This document shows, piece by piece, positions 16,348-25,850 of a stretch of DNA of 64,000 bases. Position 1 is the stretch's first letter; the number at the start of each line of letters is the position of its first letter. A program made the translations under genes and the position numbers. Under the pieces are notes generated by a model. The model was given only the letters and a program-made list of their open reading frames with translations, was not told the origin of the DNA and did not search any database. The DNA comes from Thiomargarita sp. (GTDB taxonomy: Bacteria; Pseudomonadota; Gammaproteobacteria; Beggiatoales; Beggiatoaceae): the NCBI GenBank assembly GCA_020718845.1, contig DYRG01000008.1, positions 1 through 64,000 on the forward strand, written 5' to 3'.

Positions 16348-17961
16348 ATGAACAAGTTAATTTTAGGTGATAATTTAGAGATTTTAAAACAAATCGACAG
16401 TGAAAGTGTTGATTTAATTTATCTTGATCCGCCGTTTTTTTCAAATCGAAATTATGAGGTGATTTGGGGCGATGCGGGCGAAATAAGATCATTTCAAGAT
16501 CGGTGGTCGGGGGGAATGAATCATTATATTGGTTGGCTTAAAGAACGGGTTGAGGAAATGCACCGTATTTTGAAATCAACTGGCTCGATCTTTCTTCATT
16601 GTGATTGGCACGCCAATGCTTATATTCGCGTTGAAATTTTAGATAAAATTTTTGGAGAAGAAAATCTTAAAAGTGAGATTATTTGGAAAAGAACCTTTAA
16701 TTCTGGAAGTAGTAAATCTCTTGCTAAAAAATTTCCTATTAATACAGATACGATTTATTGGTATTCAAAAACTGAAAAATATTTTTTTAACAGGATAACC
16801 CGTCCTTTAAATGATGGTGCATTAAAGCGATATGATAAAGTAGATGAAAAGGGTAAATTTATGTGGGTACCATTGAAAACAGTTTCTCAAGAAAAATTAA
16901 AAAAACTTCAAGAGTCAGGTGATATTAGAGAAGAACCACATTTAAAATATCCGCGTTATAAAAAATATTTAAATGAAGATACTGGTGTTCTATTGGATAA
17001 TTTGTGGGAGGATATTGGACAAATACACACTCGAGATTTTGGAGAAAGAATCGGTTATCCAACGCAAAAACCTGAAGCATTGCTTGAAAGAATTATTTTG
17101 TGCGCATCAAATGAAGATGATGTCATTTTAGACCCTTTTGTCGGCGGAGGAACAACCGTTGTAGTTGCCGATAAATTGAAAAGAAACTGGATTGGAATTG
17201 ATCAATCCGTTCAAGCGATTAAAGTATCTGAAATGCGTTTGCAAAAACAACAAGATTTATTATCAAAACCCTTTGTTGTTCAATTACATAAATACGATTA
17301 TGATACTTTGCGCAGTTCAAATGCGTTTGAATTTGAAAGCTGGATTATTCAACAATTTGGCGGCATTTCAAATACCAAACAACGCAACGATTTAGGGATT
17401 GATGGAAAAACCAAAGAAGGCATTCCCATTCAAGTGAAACGCTCGGATAATATCGGAAGAAATGTGATTGATAATTTCAAATCCGCTTGTGAACGTTTTG
17501 ATAGTAAATTATTTGAGAAAAATCAGATCGAAAAGAAACCGATTGGGATTTTAATTGCGTTCACTTTTGGAAAAGGGGCAATCGAAGAAGTTGCTCGTTT
17601 GAAAAATCAACAAAATCTATTAATTGAATTAAAGAAAGTGGAAGACGTTGTTCCGATTGCGAAGAAACCTAAATTAACCGTTTCTTTTAATGATTTGGGT
17701 TTAAATTCAAAGGAACTTCGAGACATCGAATTTATTGCAACAGGTGAATCTGAAGCAGGCATTGAATTTTATGCGTGGGATTTCAATTTTGATCAACAAA
17801 AGGGTTTCAAAGCCGACATTTTAATCGATAAAATTGGCAAACAAATTTATGCTTTTAAAATAGGAAGTTATCAAATCGCCATCAAAGTTGTCGATAATGA
17901 AGGCTTAGAAAGTTTAGAAGTGTTGCATTTGAAAATTAACGGAATTGTTCATCAAAAATAA
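16348..17961 (+). CDS. DNA methyltransferase fused to a nuclease-like domain and a PKD-like tail
   Basis: 537 aa. Residues 1-300 are a beta-class N4/N6 DNA methyltransferase: catalytic motif IV DPPF (27-30) comes before the SAM motif I DPFVGGGTT (262-270). Residues about 325-420 look like a PD-(D/E)XK/Mrr-type nuclease (FEFESWIIQQFGG, GIDGK with Asp352, IQVKRS with Gln362-Lys364). Residues about 445-533 resemble a PKD/Ig-like fold (YAWDFNFD, IAIKVVDNEGLESLE), normally extracellular. There is no signal peptide. This could be a one-gene restriction-modification enzyme (type IIG-like) with a beta-sandwich tail. No separate endonuclease or specificity gene is adjacent. The recognition site is unknown. 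Confidence 0.85.
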   Translation: MNKLILGDNLEILKQIDSESVDLIYLDPPFFSNRNYEVIWGDAGEIRSFQDRWSGGMNHYIGWLKERVEEMHRILKSTGSIFLHCDWHANAYIRVEILDKIFGEENLKSEIIWKRTFNSGSSKSLAKKFPINTDTIYWYSKTEKYFFNRITRPLNDGALKRYDKVDEKGKFMWVPLKTVSQEKLKKLQESGDIREEPHLKYPRYKKYLNEDTGVLLDNLWEDIGQIHTRDFGERIGYPTQKPEALLERIILCASNEDDVILDPFVGGGTTVVVADKLKRNWIGIDQSVQAIKVSEMRLQKQQDLLSKPFVVQLHKYDYDTLRSSNAFEFESWIIQQFGGISNTKQRNDLGIDGKTKEGIPIQVKRSDNIGRNVIDNFKSACERFDSKLFEKNQIEKKPIGILIAFTFGKGAIEEVARLKNQQNLLIELKKVEDVVPIAKKPKLTVSFNDLGLNSKELRDIEFIATGESEAGIEFYAWDFNFDQQKGFKADILIDKIGKQIYAFKIGSYQIAIKVVDNEGLESLEVLHLKINGIVHQK

Positions 17962-17990
17962 TTTCTTCAGATAATTGCATTAACACATAA

Positions 17991-18018
17991 AAAAACCGAA
18001 GCATTTGCCTCGGTTTTT
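17991..18018. terminator. Bidirectional terminator between the methyltransferase gene and fimV
   Basis: AAAAACCGA (17991-17999) pairs with TCGGTTTTT (18010-18018), 10-nt loop with a further GC/GC pair. T runs follow on both strands, so it can serve both convergent genes. Confidence 0.85.
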
Positions 18019-18034
18019 CTTTACTTTTTTTAAA

Positions 18035-21000
18035 CTAGACCAAACCTAGTTCATCCAATACTTCTTTTGCTCTAGCCTGTTGATCGGGTGTTCCAAAATT
18101 AACAATTTCTTCCAATGTAGATTGCGCGCTTGCAATGTCATCTGATTCTAAGTAAGCCTGCACTAAATCAAACTTACCTTCAATATCATCGCCCATCTCC
18201 AAATTGAAATCATTATTCAAATCCAGATTGAAATCATCACCTAACAACGCTTGCTCATCTGCACTTAACGATAAATCTAAGCCATCATTCATATTAGAAT
18301 CATCATTTGAACTTAAATTAAAATCAGAAAAATCATCATCTAATTTAAATTCTTCTTCAGCATTAGAAATCGTTGGCATTTCTAAAGAAGCCGTATTTTC
18401 TTCTTCTAAATTTTCCATATCTAAGTTGAAACTATCATCAAGCGCAAATTCATCATTTGTTTGTTGAGGCGTTTCTTCACTTAAAGAATCCAAACTCAAA
18501 TCATCCGCTGATTCAGCATTCAAATCCATGTTGAAACTATCATCAAGCGCAAATTCATCATTTGTTTGTTGAGGTGTTTCTTCACTTAAAGAATCCAAAT
18601 TCAAATCATCCGTTGATTCAGCATTCAAATCCATGTTGAAACTATCATCAAGCGCAAATTCATCATTTGTTTGTTGAGGTGTTTCTTCACTTAAAGAATC
18701 CAAACTCAAATCATCCGTTGATTCAGCATTCAAATCCATGTTGAAACTATCATCAAGTGCAAATTCATCATTTGTTTGTTGAGGCGTTTCTTCACTTAAA
18801 GAATCCAAATTCAAATCATCCGCTGATTCAGCATTCAAATCCATATTGAAACTATCATCAAGTGCAAATTCATCATTTGTTTGTTGAGGTGTTTCTTCAC
18901 TTAAAGAATCCAAACTCAAATCATCCGTTGATTCAGCATTCAAATCCATGTTGAAACTATCATCAAGTGCAAATTCATCATTTGTTTGTTGAGGCGTTTC
19001 TTCACTTAAAGAATCCAAATTCAAATCATCCGCTGATTCAGCATTCAAATCCATGTTGAAACTATCATCAAGCGCAAATTCATCATTTGTTTGTTGAGGC
19101 GTTTCTTCACTTAAAGAATCCAAATTCAAATCATCCGTTGATTCAGCATTCAAATCCATATTGAAACTATCATCAAGTGCAAATTCATCATTTGCTTCTG
19201 GGGTTTCTTCAAAGGCTTGTTCTTCGGTCATTCCACCCGTTAAATCACTTCCAAAATCATCAAGACTTACATCGTCAATGAAATTCTCTTGTGAGGATTC
19301 TTCACCACCATGTGTTTCTTCAACTGAAACGGCGGCAGGTTCTTCTTCTGGGATGCCTAAATCTAAACCTGAATCATCTAATAAGAAATCATCGCCTAAA
19401 GCAAAATCAGTTTCAGCGGGTTTCTCTGGTTCAGAAGATTTTAATTCTGCGGCAGGTTCTTCTTCTGAAAGACCTAAATCTAAACCAGAATCATCTAATA
19501 AGAAATCATCGCCTAAAGCAAGATCAGTTTCAGCAGGTTTCTCTGATTCAGAGGGTTTTAATTCTGCGGCTGGTTCTTCTTCTGAAAGACCTAAATCTAA
19601 ACCCGAATCATCTAATAAGAAATCATCGCCTAAAGTAAGATCAGTTTCAGCGGGTTTCTCTGGTTCAGAGGGTTTTAATTCTGCGGCAGGTTCTTCTTCT
19701 GAAAGACCTAAATCTAAACCCGAATCATCTAATAAGAATGACATATCATCTTCTTCTTGGACAGGAGAAGATGTTGCAATCGGTTCAGAAACAGGGGTTT
19801 CTTCCAAGGATTCACCTAAGTTGAAATCATCCAAACTCATGTCTTCGTCCAAATTCATGGACAAATCCATTTCTTCATGCGCAGAAGTATCTAAATTTAA
19901 GGATTCAGAAGCGGTTTCTTCATGAAGGTTTAAATCATTGCTGTCATCTTGATTTAAGAGGAAATTCATATCTTCTTCATCAGAAGAAGTCATGCTTTCA
20001 AAAGAAGTTGATTCTTCACCGAGATTGAAATCTTGATCAAAATTCATTGTATCGGTGTTAGAAATATCGGTTTCTTCGCCTAAATTTAAGCTATCCATAT
20101 CAAGCGTTTGGGTTTCATTTTCATCCATAGAAGATAAGTTGAAATCCATATCGCTGGCATCGCTTGCGTCTAAAGAAGAGAAATCTAATTCTTCACCATT
20201 TTCTTCTAAATTATTGAGATTTAAGGATTCGAATTCGCCGCCTGCGGATTCAGATTCGCCGTCGCCGTCGAACGCGCCCGCTGCCGCTAGACCTGCCGCT
20301 GCCAATCCCGCCGCGCCCAAACCAACCGCCGCCATTGTGCCTAAACCCATGCCGCTGCTTTCTTTTTCTGTTTTTTCAGCAAATGAAGATTCTTTAATAT
20401 TCAAGGGCTTATGACTAATGCCGCTCCATAAGGATTGGGCTTTTTGCCAATTATCGCTCTGTTCACCCGACACTCGATACAAGGCTTGGGCGTGTTCTTC
20501 GAAGGCTTTGGTGTTGCTTGTCGCCGCGTCGATTTCTAAGCGTTTGATTAAATAGGGTTCATGATCGGGATGTTGGTCGAGCGCGTGATTTAAGGTTTCT
20601 AAGGCTTGATCGTAACGTTCGTATTCAACATAAACATCGACTTCGTCTAAAACCTCATCGGAGGCGATAAACGCGGAATTTGTGCCATCCAATTCGGTGA
20701 AACTGTCGTCGAGATTTAATTCACAAGGGCAAAACTCGTCTTTACCATCTTGGAGTAATTCGTCGAGTTCTTCATCGGTAAGTTCTTCATTTTGAGATTG
20801 TTTTTCGTCACGACGACGGCGATACGCGCCCCAACCTAAACCGCCCAATAACGGGATGCCTAAACCACCGCCGACCGTCATCCACCCACCAGGTACAGCA
20901 GAAATCGCATTATCAGCCATATTGCCAACATCGCTCGCCATAATTAACGCGCTGTCTAAAATACTAGGTTCATCAATGGGTTGCGGAGTTTGAGTGGCGG

Positions 21001-22690
21001 CGGGTGTAATTTTAGGTTGTTCGCCTTCGATGGGTTTAGTTTCTTCGGGTTTTTTAGCTGGATCGGTGACTTGCGTGACGGTTGTATTTTGATCGGGTTT
21101 TTGATGTGGATCACTCCAACCATCTGATTTTATTTCAGTTTTAGTTTTTGAAGAATCAACATTCCAGTCATCTTTTTTAACTTCGACGGGTTTAACGTCA
21201 ATTTTGGTGAGGGTTTCGGGGGTTGTCGAAGCATCTGATTTTGTTTCAGTTTTAGGTTTATTGCCCCAATCATCTTTCTTAACGTCAGTTTTTGCCGCGT
21301 CGGGTTTGGTTTCTTCGGGTTTAACGTCGGTTTTTGCAACGGTTTCAGGTGTTTTAGAAGCATCTGATTTTGTTTCAGTTTTAGGTTTATCGCCCCAATC
21401 ATCTTTTTTAAGGTCAGTTTTTGCTGCGTCGGGTTTAATTTCTTCGGGTTTAACGTCGGTTTTTGCGATAGTATCTGATTTTACTTCAGTTTTTGGCGGT
21501 TCAACTTTCGGGGTGATTGCCGCGACGGTTGTCCCCGCAGTTTGTCCGCCTTTGGTTTGTTGTTCTAAACGCGCCAAGGTGTCGTTTTGGACTTTAATCA
21601 ACGCATCGATTTGATTTTTCATGCTTTCGACTAATTGTTTAGTCGCGGCAAGGTCTTCTTTTAAGGCTTTGTTTTCTTGTTGAATGCGTTTATTTTCTTC
21701 AATAACTTCTTGAATTTGTGTACGAAGTTGTCCGCCTTCACCTTTTGAACCCGATCCTGTTCCTTCTTCGCTTGCGCCCGAGATTTCTAAGGGTCGTTTA
21801 ATCGCGGCGGGTTTCGGACGAGGTGGCGCTTTTTTAGGTGCTGGCGCTGTGGTGATCGGCGCAGTTTCAATAAATTCAGCGACTTGATCACGATAATTAT
21901 CAAATTGCGCTTTGTTTGTGGTGGTGGTATCGAATTTAACATTTTGATCGCTCGATTCGCTCCCAATCGAAGGCGTTTGTAAAACCACACCTGCGCGCAA
22001 CCGATTGATATTTCTATTAATAAACGCATCTGGATTCGCATCTAAAATCGCTTGCATCATTTCACGTTGAGAAACGCCCGATCCAGAACGCATTTTGTTA
22101 GCGATGCCAGCCAACGACTCACCTTTTTTTACGGTGTGAGTTTCTCCCGTGACGGACACGTCCTCAGGCAATGGCGCGGCGCTGGGACGACTAGTAATAA
22201 CTTTTTTGCTTTTGACAGGTGCATCGCTTTCTTCGGATGTCGACGCTTTGGGTGCGGCAACGGGCGCAGGGCTTTCCGCTTTATAAAGGGGCGGATCGAG
22301 TAACACCGTGTATTCACGAAGAATTCTGCCATTGGGCCAATCGACTTCTAAAAGGAAATTGACAAACGGTTCTTTGATCGGTTGCGACGAAGAAATGCGA
22401 ATATCAGCGGAAGTGTCGCCCGATCCTTCCACGTTAAATTTTAGGTTAGATAGCACCACAGGGCGTTCCAAACCCGCACGTTTAAAGGCTTCAGCACTTG
22501 CCAACCGCACTTTGACATTGCCAAGATTCTGCATGTCTTGGCGCGGAATGGACATCAGCTTAATCCGTGCATTGAGGGGTTGGTTAAGTTTTGAATTAAC
22601 TTCAATATTGCCCAAACCAACCGCTTGCGCTTGACTTCCCAAGCAAGCAAGTGTTAGCAACGAAAGCGCTTTCTGAGTGAATTTACGCAT
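18035..22690 (-). CDS. fimV: FimV-like polar hub protein, LysM and TPR, with large repeat regions
   Basis: 1551 aa. Signal peptide (about 1-23), FimV N-terminal domain (GLGNIEVNSKLNQPLNARIK), LysM (HTVKKGESLAGIANKM, about 185-235), coiled coil (about 325-380), a Lys/Asp-rich repeat region, one TM helix (about 610-640, followed by YRRRR), and a very acidic cytoplasmic region with two repeat families ending in the conserved FimV C-terminal TPR (LVQAYLESDDIASAQ, ARAKEVLDELGLV). In Pseudomonas FimV binds peptidoglycan, organises polar type IV pili and T2SS, and activates adenylate cyclase CyaB. GGAG lies 10 nt before the ATG. Length is above the usual ~900 aa because of the repeats. Confidence 0.93.
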   Translation of the reverse strand: MRKFTQKALSLLTLACLGSQAQAVGLGNIEVNSKLNQPLNARIKLMSIPRQDMQNLGNVKVRLASAEAFKRAGLERPVVLSNLKFNVEGSGDTSADIRISSSQPIKEPFVNFLLEVDWPNGRILREYTVLLDPPLYKAESPAPVAAPKASTSEESDAPVKSKKVITSRPSAAPLPEDVSVTGETHTVKKGESLAGIANKMRSGSGVSQREMMQAILDANPDAFINRNINRLRAGVVLQTPSIGSESSDQNVKFDTTTTNKAQFDNYRDQVAEFIETAPITTAPAPKKAPPRPKPAAIKRPLEISGASEEGTGSGSKGEGGQLRTQIQEVIEENKRIQQENKALKEDLAATKQLVESMKNQIDALIKVQNDTLARLEQQTKGGQTAGTTVAAITPKVEPPKTEVKSDTIAKTDVKPEEIKPDAAKTDLKKDDWGDKPKTETKSDASKTPETVAKTDVKPEETKPDAAKTDVKKDDWGNKPKTETKSDASTTPETLTKIDVKPVEVKKDDWNVDSSKTKTEIKSDGWSDPHQKPDQNTTVTQVTDPAKKPEETKPIEGEQPKITPAATQTPQPIDEPSILDSALIMASDVGNMADNAISAVPGGWMTVGGGLGIPLLGGLGWGAYRRRRDEKQSQNEELTDEELDELLQDGKDEFCPCELNLDDSFTELDGTNSAFIASDEVLDEVDVYVEYERYDQALETLNHALDQHPDHEPYLIKRLEIDAATSNTKAFEEHAQALYRVSGEQSDNWQKAQSLWSGISHKPLNIKESSFAEKTEKESSGMGLGTMAAVGLGAAGLAAAGLAAAGAFDGDGESESAGGEFESLNLNNLEENGEELDFSSLDASDASDMDFNLSSMDENETQTLDMDSLNLGEETDISNTDTMNFDQDFNLGEESTSFESMTSSDEEDMNFLLNQDDSNDLNLHEETASESLNLDTSAHEEMDLSMNLDEDMSLDDFNLGESLEETPVSEPIATSSPVQEEDDMSFLLDDSGLDLGLSEEEPAAELKPSEPEKPAETDLTLGDDFLLDDSGLDLGLSEEEPAAELKPSESEKPAETDLALGDDFLLDDSGLDLGLSEEEPAAELKSSEPEKPAETDFALGDDFLLDDSGLDLGIPEEEPAAVSVEETHGGEESSQENFIDDVSLDDFGSDLTGGMTEEQAFEETPEANDEFALDDSFNMDLNAESTDDLNLDSLSEETPQQTNDEFALDDSFNMDLNAESADDLNLDSLSEETPQQTNDEFALDDSFNMDLNAESTDDLSLDSLSEETPQQTNDEFALDDSFNMDLNAESADDLNLDSLSEETPQQTNDEFALDDSFNMDLNAESTDDLSLDSLSEETPQQTNDEFALDDSFNMDLNAESTDDLNLDSLSEETPQQTNDEFALDDSFNMDLNAESADDLSLDSLSEETPQQTNDEFALDDSFNLDMENLEEENTASLEMPTISNAEEEFKLDDDFSDFNLSSNDDSNMNDGLDLSLSADEQALLGDDFNLDLNNDFNLEMGDDIEGKFDLVQAYLESDDIASAQSTLEEIVNFGTPDQQARAKEVLDELGLV
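18461..19195 (-). repeat. Seven tandem 105-bp repeats in fimV
   Basis: Each unit encodes 35 residues beginning NDEFALDDSFNMDLNAES and ending LDSLSEETPQQ. There are seven full units plus a partial eighth (to about 18412). They differ mainly at two codons (Thr/Ala in ES[TA]DD and Asn/Ser in DDL[NS]LD) and at silent sites, and are otherwise near identical, so copy number is likely to change by slippage or recombination. Confidence 0.95.
19331..19738 (-). repeat. Three and a half tandem 117-bp repeats in fimV
   Basis: 39-residue unit starting FLLDDSGLDLGLSEEEPAAE; units start at 19738, 19621, 19504 and 19387, the last truncated after about 19 residues. Unrelated in period to the neighbouring 105-bp repeats but also acidic. 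Confidence 0.92.
21115..21457 (-). repeat. Two and a half tandem 129-bp repeats in fimV
   Basis: 43-residue unit starting DVKPEE and containing KKDDWG and KTETKSDAS; units start at 21457, 21328 and 21199, the third degenerate and shortened. It lies in the periplasmic part between the coiled coil and the TM helix and is mixed-charge, unlike the two acidic cytoplasmic blocks. Confidence 0.9.
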
Positions 22691-25044: not shown

Positions 25045-25227
25045 ATGTATGCCATAGAATTTGAAACCCAAATCCATAATGGTATTATTCAAATACCAGA
25101 GCAATATTCGTCATGGAAAAATAAAATGGTAAAAGTCATTTTATTAGACACAGAAACAGAGCAACTTATAAAGCCAACTACGGAGAACATCATTCATTCT
25201 AATGTTTCAAAAACAAATGAATCATAA
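25045..25227 (+). CDS. Small antitoxin-like protein
   Basis: 60 aa, preceded by AGAGGAAAACTATC. The pattern MYAIEFETQIHNGIIQIPEQ followed by VKVILL resembles short proteins commonly found before toxin or nuclease-like genes in filamentous sulfur bacteria and cyanobacteria, with a beta-rich AbrB/DUF2281-like look. It is 17 bp upstream of the PD-(D/E)XK gene. An antitoxin role is a guess; no DNA-binding motif can be pointed to with confidence. Confidence 0.5.
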   Translation: MYAIEFETQIHNGIIQIPEQYSSWKNKMVKVILLDTETEQLIKPTTENIIHSNVSKTNES

Positions 25228-25244
25228 GAACAATAGGAAAAACT

Positions 25245-25850
25245 ATGTCATACAGTGATTTTACGTTAAAGAAAGTTAAAGAACAACTTAAAATAAAAGT
25301 TGTTGAAGATCGAGATTTGTTTTCTAAAACTAATGAAATTGAAATTAGTGATTATTTATCGACAACTTTAAAATATAATGTTCCTCTGGCTTTAGCAGTA
25401 GGAACTGAGAAATTTCGTTCTGAATTAATCATTGCAAATATCTTATTAGAAGTTCGGCGAATTTTAAAGGATAAAATTAGTTTATTTTCGGGGATTAATT
25501 TGGAAGTTGACAAACAACAAGATTTAAATGGATTCTGTGATTTTTTGATAAGTAAATCACCAGAGCAATATTATCTAAATGCGCCAATTATTACCATTGT
25601 TGAAGCTAAAAATGAAAACATTTCTGGGGGTTTAGGACAATGTATTGCAGAAATGTTTGCCGCTTATCTTTTTAATGAGAAAGAAGGTTTAATTTTACCT
25701 AATATCTATGGCGTAGTAACTACTGGAAATACTTGGAAATTTTTGAAATATGAATTAAACACAGTTTATATTGATGTTCCAGAATATCATGTAACAAACA
25801 TTAATAAAATCGTTGGTATTTTAGTGAACATGGTTAATCAAGAGGCGTAA
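25245..25850 (+). CDS. PD-(D/E)XK nuclease-like protein
   Basis: 201 aa. The core is clear: Glu60 (KFRSELIIAN), Asp99 (GFCDFLIS), the ExK pair in IVEAKNENI (Glu120, Lys122), and a trailing Gln in GLGQCIAEMFAA. This matches small predicted nucleases widespread in cyanobacteria and Beggiatoa relatives with no known function. AATAGGAAAA gives a ribosome site. Its stop abuts the hisH start, so it is embedded in the his/aspS transcript. Together with the 60-aa gene it may form a toxin-antitoxin-like or selfish module; that is inference. Confidence 0.65.
   Translation: MSYSDFTLKKVKEQLKIKVVEDRDLFSKTNEIEISDYLSTTLKYNVPLALAVGTEKFRSELIIANILLEVRRILKDKISLFSGINLEVDKQQDLNGFCDFLISKSPEQYYLNAPIITIVEAKNENISGGLGQCIAEMFAAYLFNEKEGLILPNIYGVVTTGNTWKFLKYELNTVYIDVPEYHVTNINKIVGILVNMVNQEA

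What the first reader, a model, noticed from the sequence alone, without database searches (positions are those of the whole stretch)
16348..17961. Methyltransferase-nuclease fusion with an internal PKD-like domain
One protein carries a beta-class DNA methyltransferase, a PD-(D/E)XK/Mrr-like domain (Asp352, Gln362-x-Lys364) and a C-terminal segment that looks like a PKD/Ig fold. PKD domains are normally extracellular, so one on a cytoplasmic DNA enzyme is unexpected; it may bind DNA or a partner, or mark a new restriction architecture. No other R-M or defence gene is adjacent.
Basis: partly seen in the sequence, partly recalled or inferred. Interest (0 to 1): 0.65.

Follow-up and report, generated by a model that had tools for sequence, protein, structure and literature searches.

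The report
One-protein restriction-modification enzyme with PKD tail
A single bacterial protein joins a DNA-marking enzyme, a DNA-cutting domain and a beta-sandwich (PKD-like) tail of a kind normally seen outside cells; the same three-part protein is found in about seven bacterial phyla and differs mainly in the part that should read DNA sequence, so it looks like a little-noticed family of one-gene anti-virus restriction enzymes.

Summary
Window 16348-17961 (+) encodes a 537-aa protein: beta-class amino-methyltransferase (DPPF, then DPFVGGGTT; Pfam E 8.8e-49), Mrr-type PD-(D/Q)xK nuclease (D352, Q362, K364) and a C-terminal PKD-like beta-sandwich. AlphaFold (pLDDT 87-91) gives all three folds; the tail matches solved PKD domains (Foldseek E 7e-5), the nuclease matches MspJI. 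It is not a one-off: 74 aligned full-length homologues from about seven phyla keep the order; D352 and K364 are invariant, Q362 is 73/74. Only the target-recognition region (116-215) is hypervariable (mean identity 0.30 against 0.56-0.79 elsewhere), also between paralogues of one genome. No partner gene is conserved. In the chromosomal clade nuclease and PKD occur together (85 whole ORFs) or are both absent (MTase-only genes, sometimes in tandem beside the fusion); related viral-contig enzymes have the nuclease but no PKD. Best reading: a self-contained Type II (IIC/IIG-like) restriction-modification enzyme built on a beta-class MTase, with the PKD serving the nuclease (probably protein-protein contact), not sequence reading. 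The layout resembles BtgZI (MTase first, PD-QXK last), but the MTase class differs and the PKD is extra. New variant of a known kind; activity untested.

The parts
16348..17961 (+). whole gene: beta-class MTase - Mrr-type nuclease - PKD-like fusion, 537 aa plus stop
16348..16692 (+). MTase N-part (residues 1-115), mean identity 0.79 in the family
16426..16437 (+). DPPF catalytic motif IV (residues 27-30), 74/74
16693..16992 (+). target-recognition region (residues 116-215), hypervariable, basic
16993..17256 (+). MTase C-part (residues 216-303) with GYPTQKP and SAM motif DPFVGGGTT (motif I after motif IV = beta class)
17263..17649 (+). Mrr-type PD-(D/Q)xK nuclease domain (residues 306-434)
17401..17403 (+). 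catalytic Asp352
   Evidence: 74/74 conserved
17431..17439 (+). Gln362-Val-Lys364 of the PD...QxK motif
   Evidence: Q 73/74, K 74/74
17668..17958 (+). PKD-like beta-sandwich (residues 441-537; WDF 477-479, KVVDNEG 513-519)
17990..18023 (.). terminator-like inverted repeat (accgaagc / gcctcggt followed by a T run), between this gene and the convergent downstream gene
   Evidence: read from the sequence

Best explanation
A self-sufficient single-chain Type II restriction-modification enzyme (IIC/IIG-like) built on a beta-class, probably N6-adenine, methyltransferase. The TRD inside the MTase (116-215) reads a short sequence and serves both activities: on DNA carrying the mark nothing is cut; on fully unmarked DNA the Mrr-type nuclease, attached to the MTase C-terminus, cuts near the site, probably after two bound molecules meet, because each chain has one active site. 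The PKD-like tail works with the nuclease, most likely as a protein-protein (dimerisation or docking) or positioning module, not as a sequence reader. Specificity evolves by replacing the TRD while the body stays constant. Shown: architecture, predicted folds, conserved catalytic residues, TRD hypervariability, absence of partner genes, joint loss of nuclease and PKD. Inferred: both activities, the methylated base, cutting of unmarked sites, dimerisation, and the PKD's role.
For: Domains and catalytic residues. Models: MTase Z 28.2 to M.BceJIV and 27.3 to CcrM; nuclease Z 8.6 to MspJI; PKD Z 9.2-9.5 to the PKD domains of Epp, PrtV and ColG, Foldseek E 7e-5 to ColG PKD. TRD identity 0.30 against 0.56-0.79 elsewhere over 74 homologues; in all 21 within-genome comparisons of paralogues the TRD is the least alike region (0.16-0.53), while the rest is mostly 0.57-0.96. 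The own-genome paralogue has a different TRD (0.33), yet the DNA of residues 321-400 is identical, a sign of recombination. No conserved neighbour. Nuclease and PKD are present together in 85 whole genomic ORFs and both absent in the clean MTase-only ORFs; two in-frame deletions removed the nuclease core and most of the PKD together and left the last PKD strand (L040, L119). The PKD is acidic, TRD and nuclease basic.
Against: No activity or methylation motif is tied to any member. The nuclease HMM match of this protein alone is weak. The family is rare in Pseudomonadota outside its own family (no full member in 397 other genomes sampled), and several copies are frameshifted, so some may be relics. 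Joint retention of nuclease and PKD could reflect simple linkage at the C-terminus. Related viral-contig enzymes keep the nuclease without a PKD, so the PKD is not needed for this kind of nuclease in general.
Confidence: 0.7

Rival explanations
1. Mainly a methyltransferase today: the nuclease is a vestige or is rarely used, and the gene serves as an epigenetic or protective MTase.
For: MTase-only derivatives are common and stand intact beside fusions; some copies have lost nuclease and PKD or are frameshifted.
Against: D352 and K364 are invariant across 74 proteins of many phyla, and nuclease (0.69) and PKD (0.56) are far better conserved than the TRD; a vestige would not keep its active site.
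Confidence: 0.13
2. The Mrr-type domain is modification-dependent (Type IV-like): it cuts DNA carrying foreign or wrongly placed marks, and the MTase is uncoupled from it or labels self.
For: Its best structural match in the nuclease part is MspJI, a modification-dependent enzyme; Mrr itself is modification-dependent (general knowledge).
Against: No modified-base reader domain is seen; the only hypervariable reader is the MTase TRD; the same PD-QXK class serves unmodified-site cutters such as BtgZI and Type ISP enzymes (PMC4081073, PMC3874165).
Confidence: 0.1
3. The PKD-like domain is a DNA-binding element that sets sequence specificity or clamps DNA.
Against: Acidic on average (net -3.5), conserved between paralogues whose TRDs differ (0.96 against 0.33 in this genome), and absent from related viral-contig enzymes.
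Confidence: 0.07

Closest known systems
BtgZI (Type IIC, alpha-class MTase first, PD-QXK nuclease last; PMC4081073)
   Same: single chain, MTase N-terminal, C-terminal PD-D/EXK variant with Q for E
   Different: alpha-class instead of beta-class MTase; no PKD is mentioned; the two sequences were not compared here
MmeI family (Type IIL/IIG, gamma-class; PMC3874165)
   Same: one polypeptide with constant body and diversified TRD, no separate MTase needed
   Different: nuclease N-terminal, gamma-class MTase, TRD C-terminal
CcrM, M.RsrI, M.MboIIA, M.BceJIV (beta-class amino-MTases)
   Same: MTase fold and motif order (Z 26.9-28.2)
   Different: no nuclease or PKD
PKD-less beta-MTase-Mrr fusions: three in the same genome (L004, L006, L007), plasmid and phage relatives (L114-L116), viral-contig relatives (L151-L156, L158, L166, L167)
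   Same: MTase followed by Mrr-type nuclease; D and K of the nuclease kept
   Different: no PKD; most end soon after the nuclease
PKD domains of ColG, PrtV and Epp
   Same: fold; WDF and VxDxxG-like signature; 15-31% identity over 77-81 aligned residues
   Different: those are domains of secreted proteases; this one sits on an intracellular DNA enzyme; Pfam PKD does not detect it in the window protein

Membership tests
beta-class amino-methyltransferase | motif IV (D/N/SPPY/F) before motif I (FxGxG), N6_N4_Mtase match | tested here: met
   PF01555 E 8.8e-49; DPPF at 27-30, FVGGGT at 264-269
Mrr-type PD-(D/E)XK nuclease | core fold with D ... (E/Q)xK active site | tested here: met
   D352 and K364 74/74, Q362 73/74; model aligned to MspJI Z 8.6, rmsd 3.9, 110 residues
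Mrr_cat (PF04471) | score above the gathering cut-off | tested here: not met
   14.7 against 21 bits for the window protein; PKD-less relatives pass
PKD-type fold | seven-stranded PKD-type beta-sandwich | tested here: met
   model pLDDT about 93; several PKD domains among the best Foldseek and VIA matches
PKD domain (Pfam PF00801/PF18911) | profile match above the gathering cut-off | tested here: not met
   no match for the window protein; only 5 and 3 of 74 relatives, weak
Type IIC (combined) restriction-modification | nuclease and MTase domains in one chain sharing one specificity module | tested here: met
   one intact chain; single hypervariable TRD; by sequence only
Type IIG restriction-modification | gamma-class MTase (as described in PMC4081073) | tested here: not met
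   MTase is beta-class
Type II restriction-modification (any) | cleaves specific unmodified DNA; modification protects | not testable with these tools
   needs biochemistry or a methylome
Type III (Mod/Res) | separate Res helicase-nuclease gene | tested here: not met
   no such neighbour in the window region and no neighbour shared by homologous loci

The most novel reading that the evidence does not exclude
A distinct class of single-gene restriction-modification systems in which a PKD-like module of extracellular type was fixed in a chromosomal lineage as the assembly or control element of the nuclease, and whose tandem MTase-only copies act as a reservoir of target-recognition segments that recombine into the cutting copy to switch specificity.
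Probability: 0.2. Interest if true: 0.72.

Novelty: new variant of a known kind. Interest (0 to 1): 0.52.

Why it matters
One short gene (about 1.5-1.9 kb) would hold a complete restriction-modification system with a swappable recognition segment, in many uncultured bacteria, where public records of relatives name only 'DNA methyltransferase'. It would extend single-chain R-M enzymes to beta-class MTases, give a cytoplasmic role to a PKD fold, and offer a compact scaffold for mining cutting specificities, since TRD and body separate cleanly.

Tried and rejected
PKD as the TRD: rejected; the hypervariable segment lies inside the MTase. Hidden partner gene: clustering of 502 flanking ORFs from 80 loci found no family shared by more than five loci, and those look generic. 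Specificity from a TRD relative: the TRD search in plasmids gave only unnamed MTases at 26-36% identity. Literature: no paper found that combines PKD with an R-M enzyme; the papers under only share the words. REBASE could not be searched, so prior curation there is not excluded. PADLOC and NCBIfam gave MTase matches only among the rows shown. Structure search with the full model was filled by MTases, so the C-terminal part was folded and searched alone.

Full report
Observation. The window has an intact 537-codon gene at 16348-17961 (+) with no R-M or defence gene beside it. Upstream lie a divergent membrane-protein gene and a set of pseudopilin-like genes; downstream a convergent, repeat-rich FimV-like gene. 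A terminator-like hairpin follows the stop codon.

Domains. Residues 21-294 are a beta-class amino-MTase (N6_N4_Mtase E 8.8e-49; model Z 27-28 to M.BceJIV and CcrM). DPPF suggests N6-adenine (inference from the family). Residues 306-434 are an Mrr-type nuclease. Pfam sees it only weakly here (E 0.035) but better in relatives, and the C-terminal model aligns to MspJI (Z 8.6, rmsd 3.9, 110 residues). Residues 441-537 are a seven-stranded sandwich predicted with high confidence whose best structural matches include PKD domains of ColG, PrtV and Epp (Z 9.2-9.5; Foldseek E 7e-5 to 5e-4). The profile of the tail alone also ranks PKD chains first among solved structures, though not significantly (E 0.02).

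Family. One scan of bacterial and archaeal genomes found 148 relatives; the best 80 were kept. By record titles they span Bacteroidota, Pseudomonadota, Spirochaetota, Planctomycetota, Cloacimonadota, Elusimicrobiota and the Chitinispirillales, many from metagenomes; single MAG contigs may be mis-binned. In 74 aligned full-length proteins D352, K364 and the DPPF motif are invariant and Q362 is 73/74. In the window's own taxonomic family 12 of 43 genomes, its own included, carry the C-terminal part; one genome has seven copies. In a sample of 398 genomes of the phylum only the own genome had a full member; two others gave weak nuclease-only matches.

Recognition region. Mean identity is 0.79 (MTase N), 0.30 (residues 116-215), 0.69-0.70 (MTase C), 0.68-0.69 (nuclease) and 0.56-0.59 (PKD). 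Paralogues within a genome repeat the pattern: the window copy and the second copy of this genome share 0.92, 0.33, 0.85, 0.91 and 0.96, and their DNA is identical over residues 321-400 but mostly 60-80% over the TRD. This is the pattern of a constant body with exchanged recognition segments, as in MmeI-type enzymes (PMC3874165).

Arrays and losses. Several loci carry MTase-only genes of the same clade in tandem with the fusion: two plus one in L036 and L067, one plus one in L031, fusion plus MTase-only in L040; L097 and L022/L027 have tandem full copies. Counting distinct ORFs of the clade, 85 whole genomic ORFs have MTase, nuclease and PKD; 15 are MTase-only (a few of these are visibly truncated); the three 'nuclease without PKD' cases are broken or internally deleted. 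Two in-frame deletions (L040, L119) fuse the MTase side to the last PKD strand, so nuclease core and PKD went together.

PKD-less relatives. This genome also holds at least three beta-MTase-Mrr fusions with no tail (L004, L006, L007; 35-37% identity), and plasmid and phage records have similar ones (L114-L116). Closer relatives on viral contigs (MTase N-part about 58-68% identical) have the same nuclease with D and QxK kept and stop soon after it; a tenth such viral protein (L157) has a more divergent nuclease. Two short contigs of the viral collection (L148, L149) carry the PKD form. Public plasmid and phage records name these proteins only as DNA methyltransferases. The PKD therefore looks like an addition on one branch of a wider group of single-chain beta-MTase-Mrr enzymes; this is inferred from the distribution, no tree was built.

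Mechanism. The simplest reading is one TRD serving methylation and cutting, as in Type IIC enzymes, where one active site per chain is presumed to require transient dimerisation (PMC4081073). The tail's acidity, its constancy across TRDs, and its joint retention and loss with the nuclease favour a role in nuclease assembly or positioning rather than DNA reading. None of this has been tested biochemically. With one-strand methylation the enzyme would face the replication problem discussed for MmeI (PMC3874165); neighbouring MTase-only genes could help, but most copies are solitary.

Comparison. BtgZI is the nearest described layout (MTase first, PD-QXK last; PMC4081073), with an alpha-class MTase. 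Type IIG as described there uses gamma-class MTases, so strict membership fails on that feature although the way of working is probably alike. No paper found describes a PKD on an R-M enzyme; REBASE was not available, so a curated entry there may exist.

Noticed in passing
window 25245-25850 (+), with 25045-25227: A 201-aa protein with a PD-(D/E)XK-like 'EAKNE' stretch and a small upstream ORF sit between two histidine-biosynthesis-like genes (hisB-like and hisH-like), like a small inserted cassette.
   Followed up: no
window 18035-22690 (-): FimV-like protein of 1551 aa with long near-identical acidic repeats (DDSFNMDLNAESTDDLNLDSLSEETPQQTNDEFAL), the next gene downstream.
   Followed up: no
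L004 1201-2781, L006 1150-2658, L007 919-2688: Same genome: at least three further single-chain beta-MTase-Mrr fusions without PKD, also with differing TRDs; this genome seems rich in one-gene R-M enzymes.
   Followed up: partly
L036 3156-6518; L067 2977-6734; L031 4049-6608: Tandem MTase-only genes with different TRDs directly upstream of the fusion gene on the same strand: possible TRD reservoir or companion methylases.
   Followed up: partly
L040 7524-8426; L119 1480-2631: In-frame internal deletions join the MTase side to the last PKD strand, showing how MTase-only forms can arise from the fusion.
   Followed up: yes
L151-L156, L158, L166, L167: Viral contigs (up to 90 kb) carry PKD-less versions with intact nuclease residues; in L153 the gene lies near SMC-like and replication-type ORFs.
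   Followed up: partly
L012 and L125 (genome G029): A family member split by about 1.5 kb, with an IS5-like transposase ORF at the break.
   Followed up: no
L063 83-3878: Fusion gene directly follows an AAA ATPase gene and a second gene that look like an OLD-type pair; not shared by other loci.
   Followed up: no
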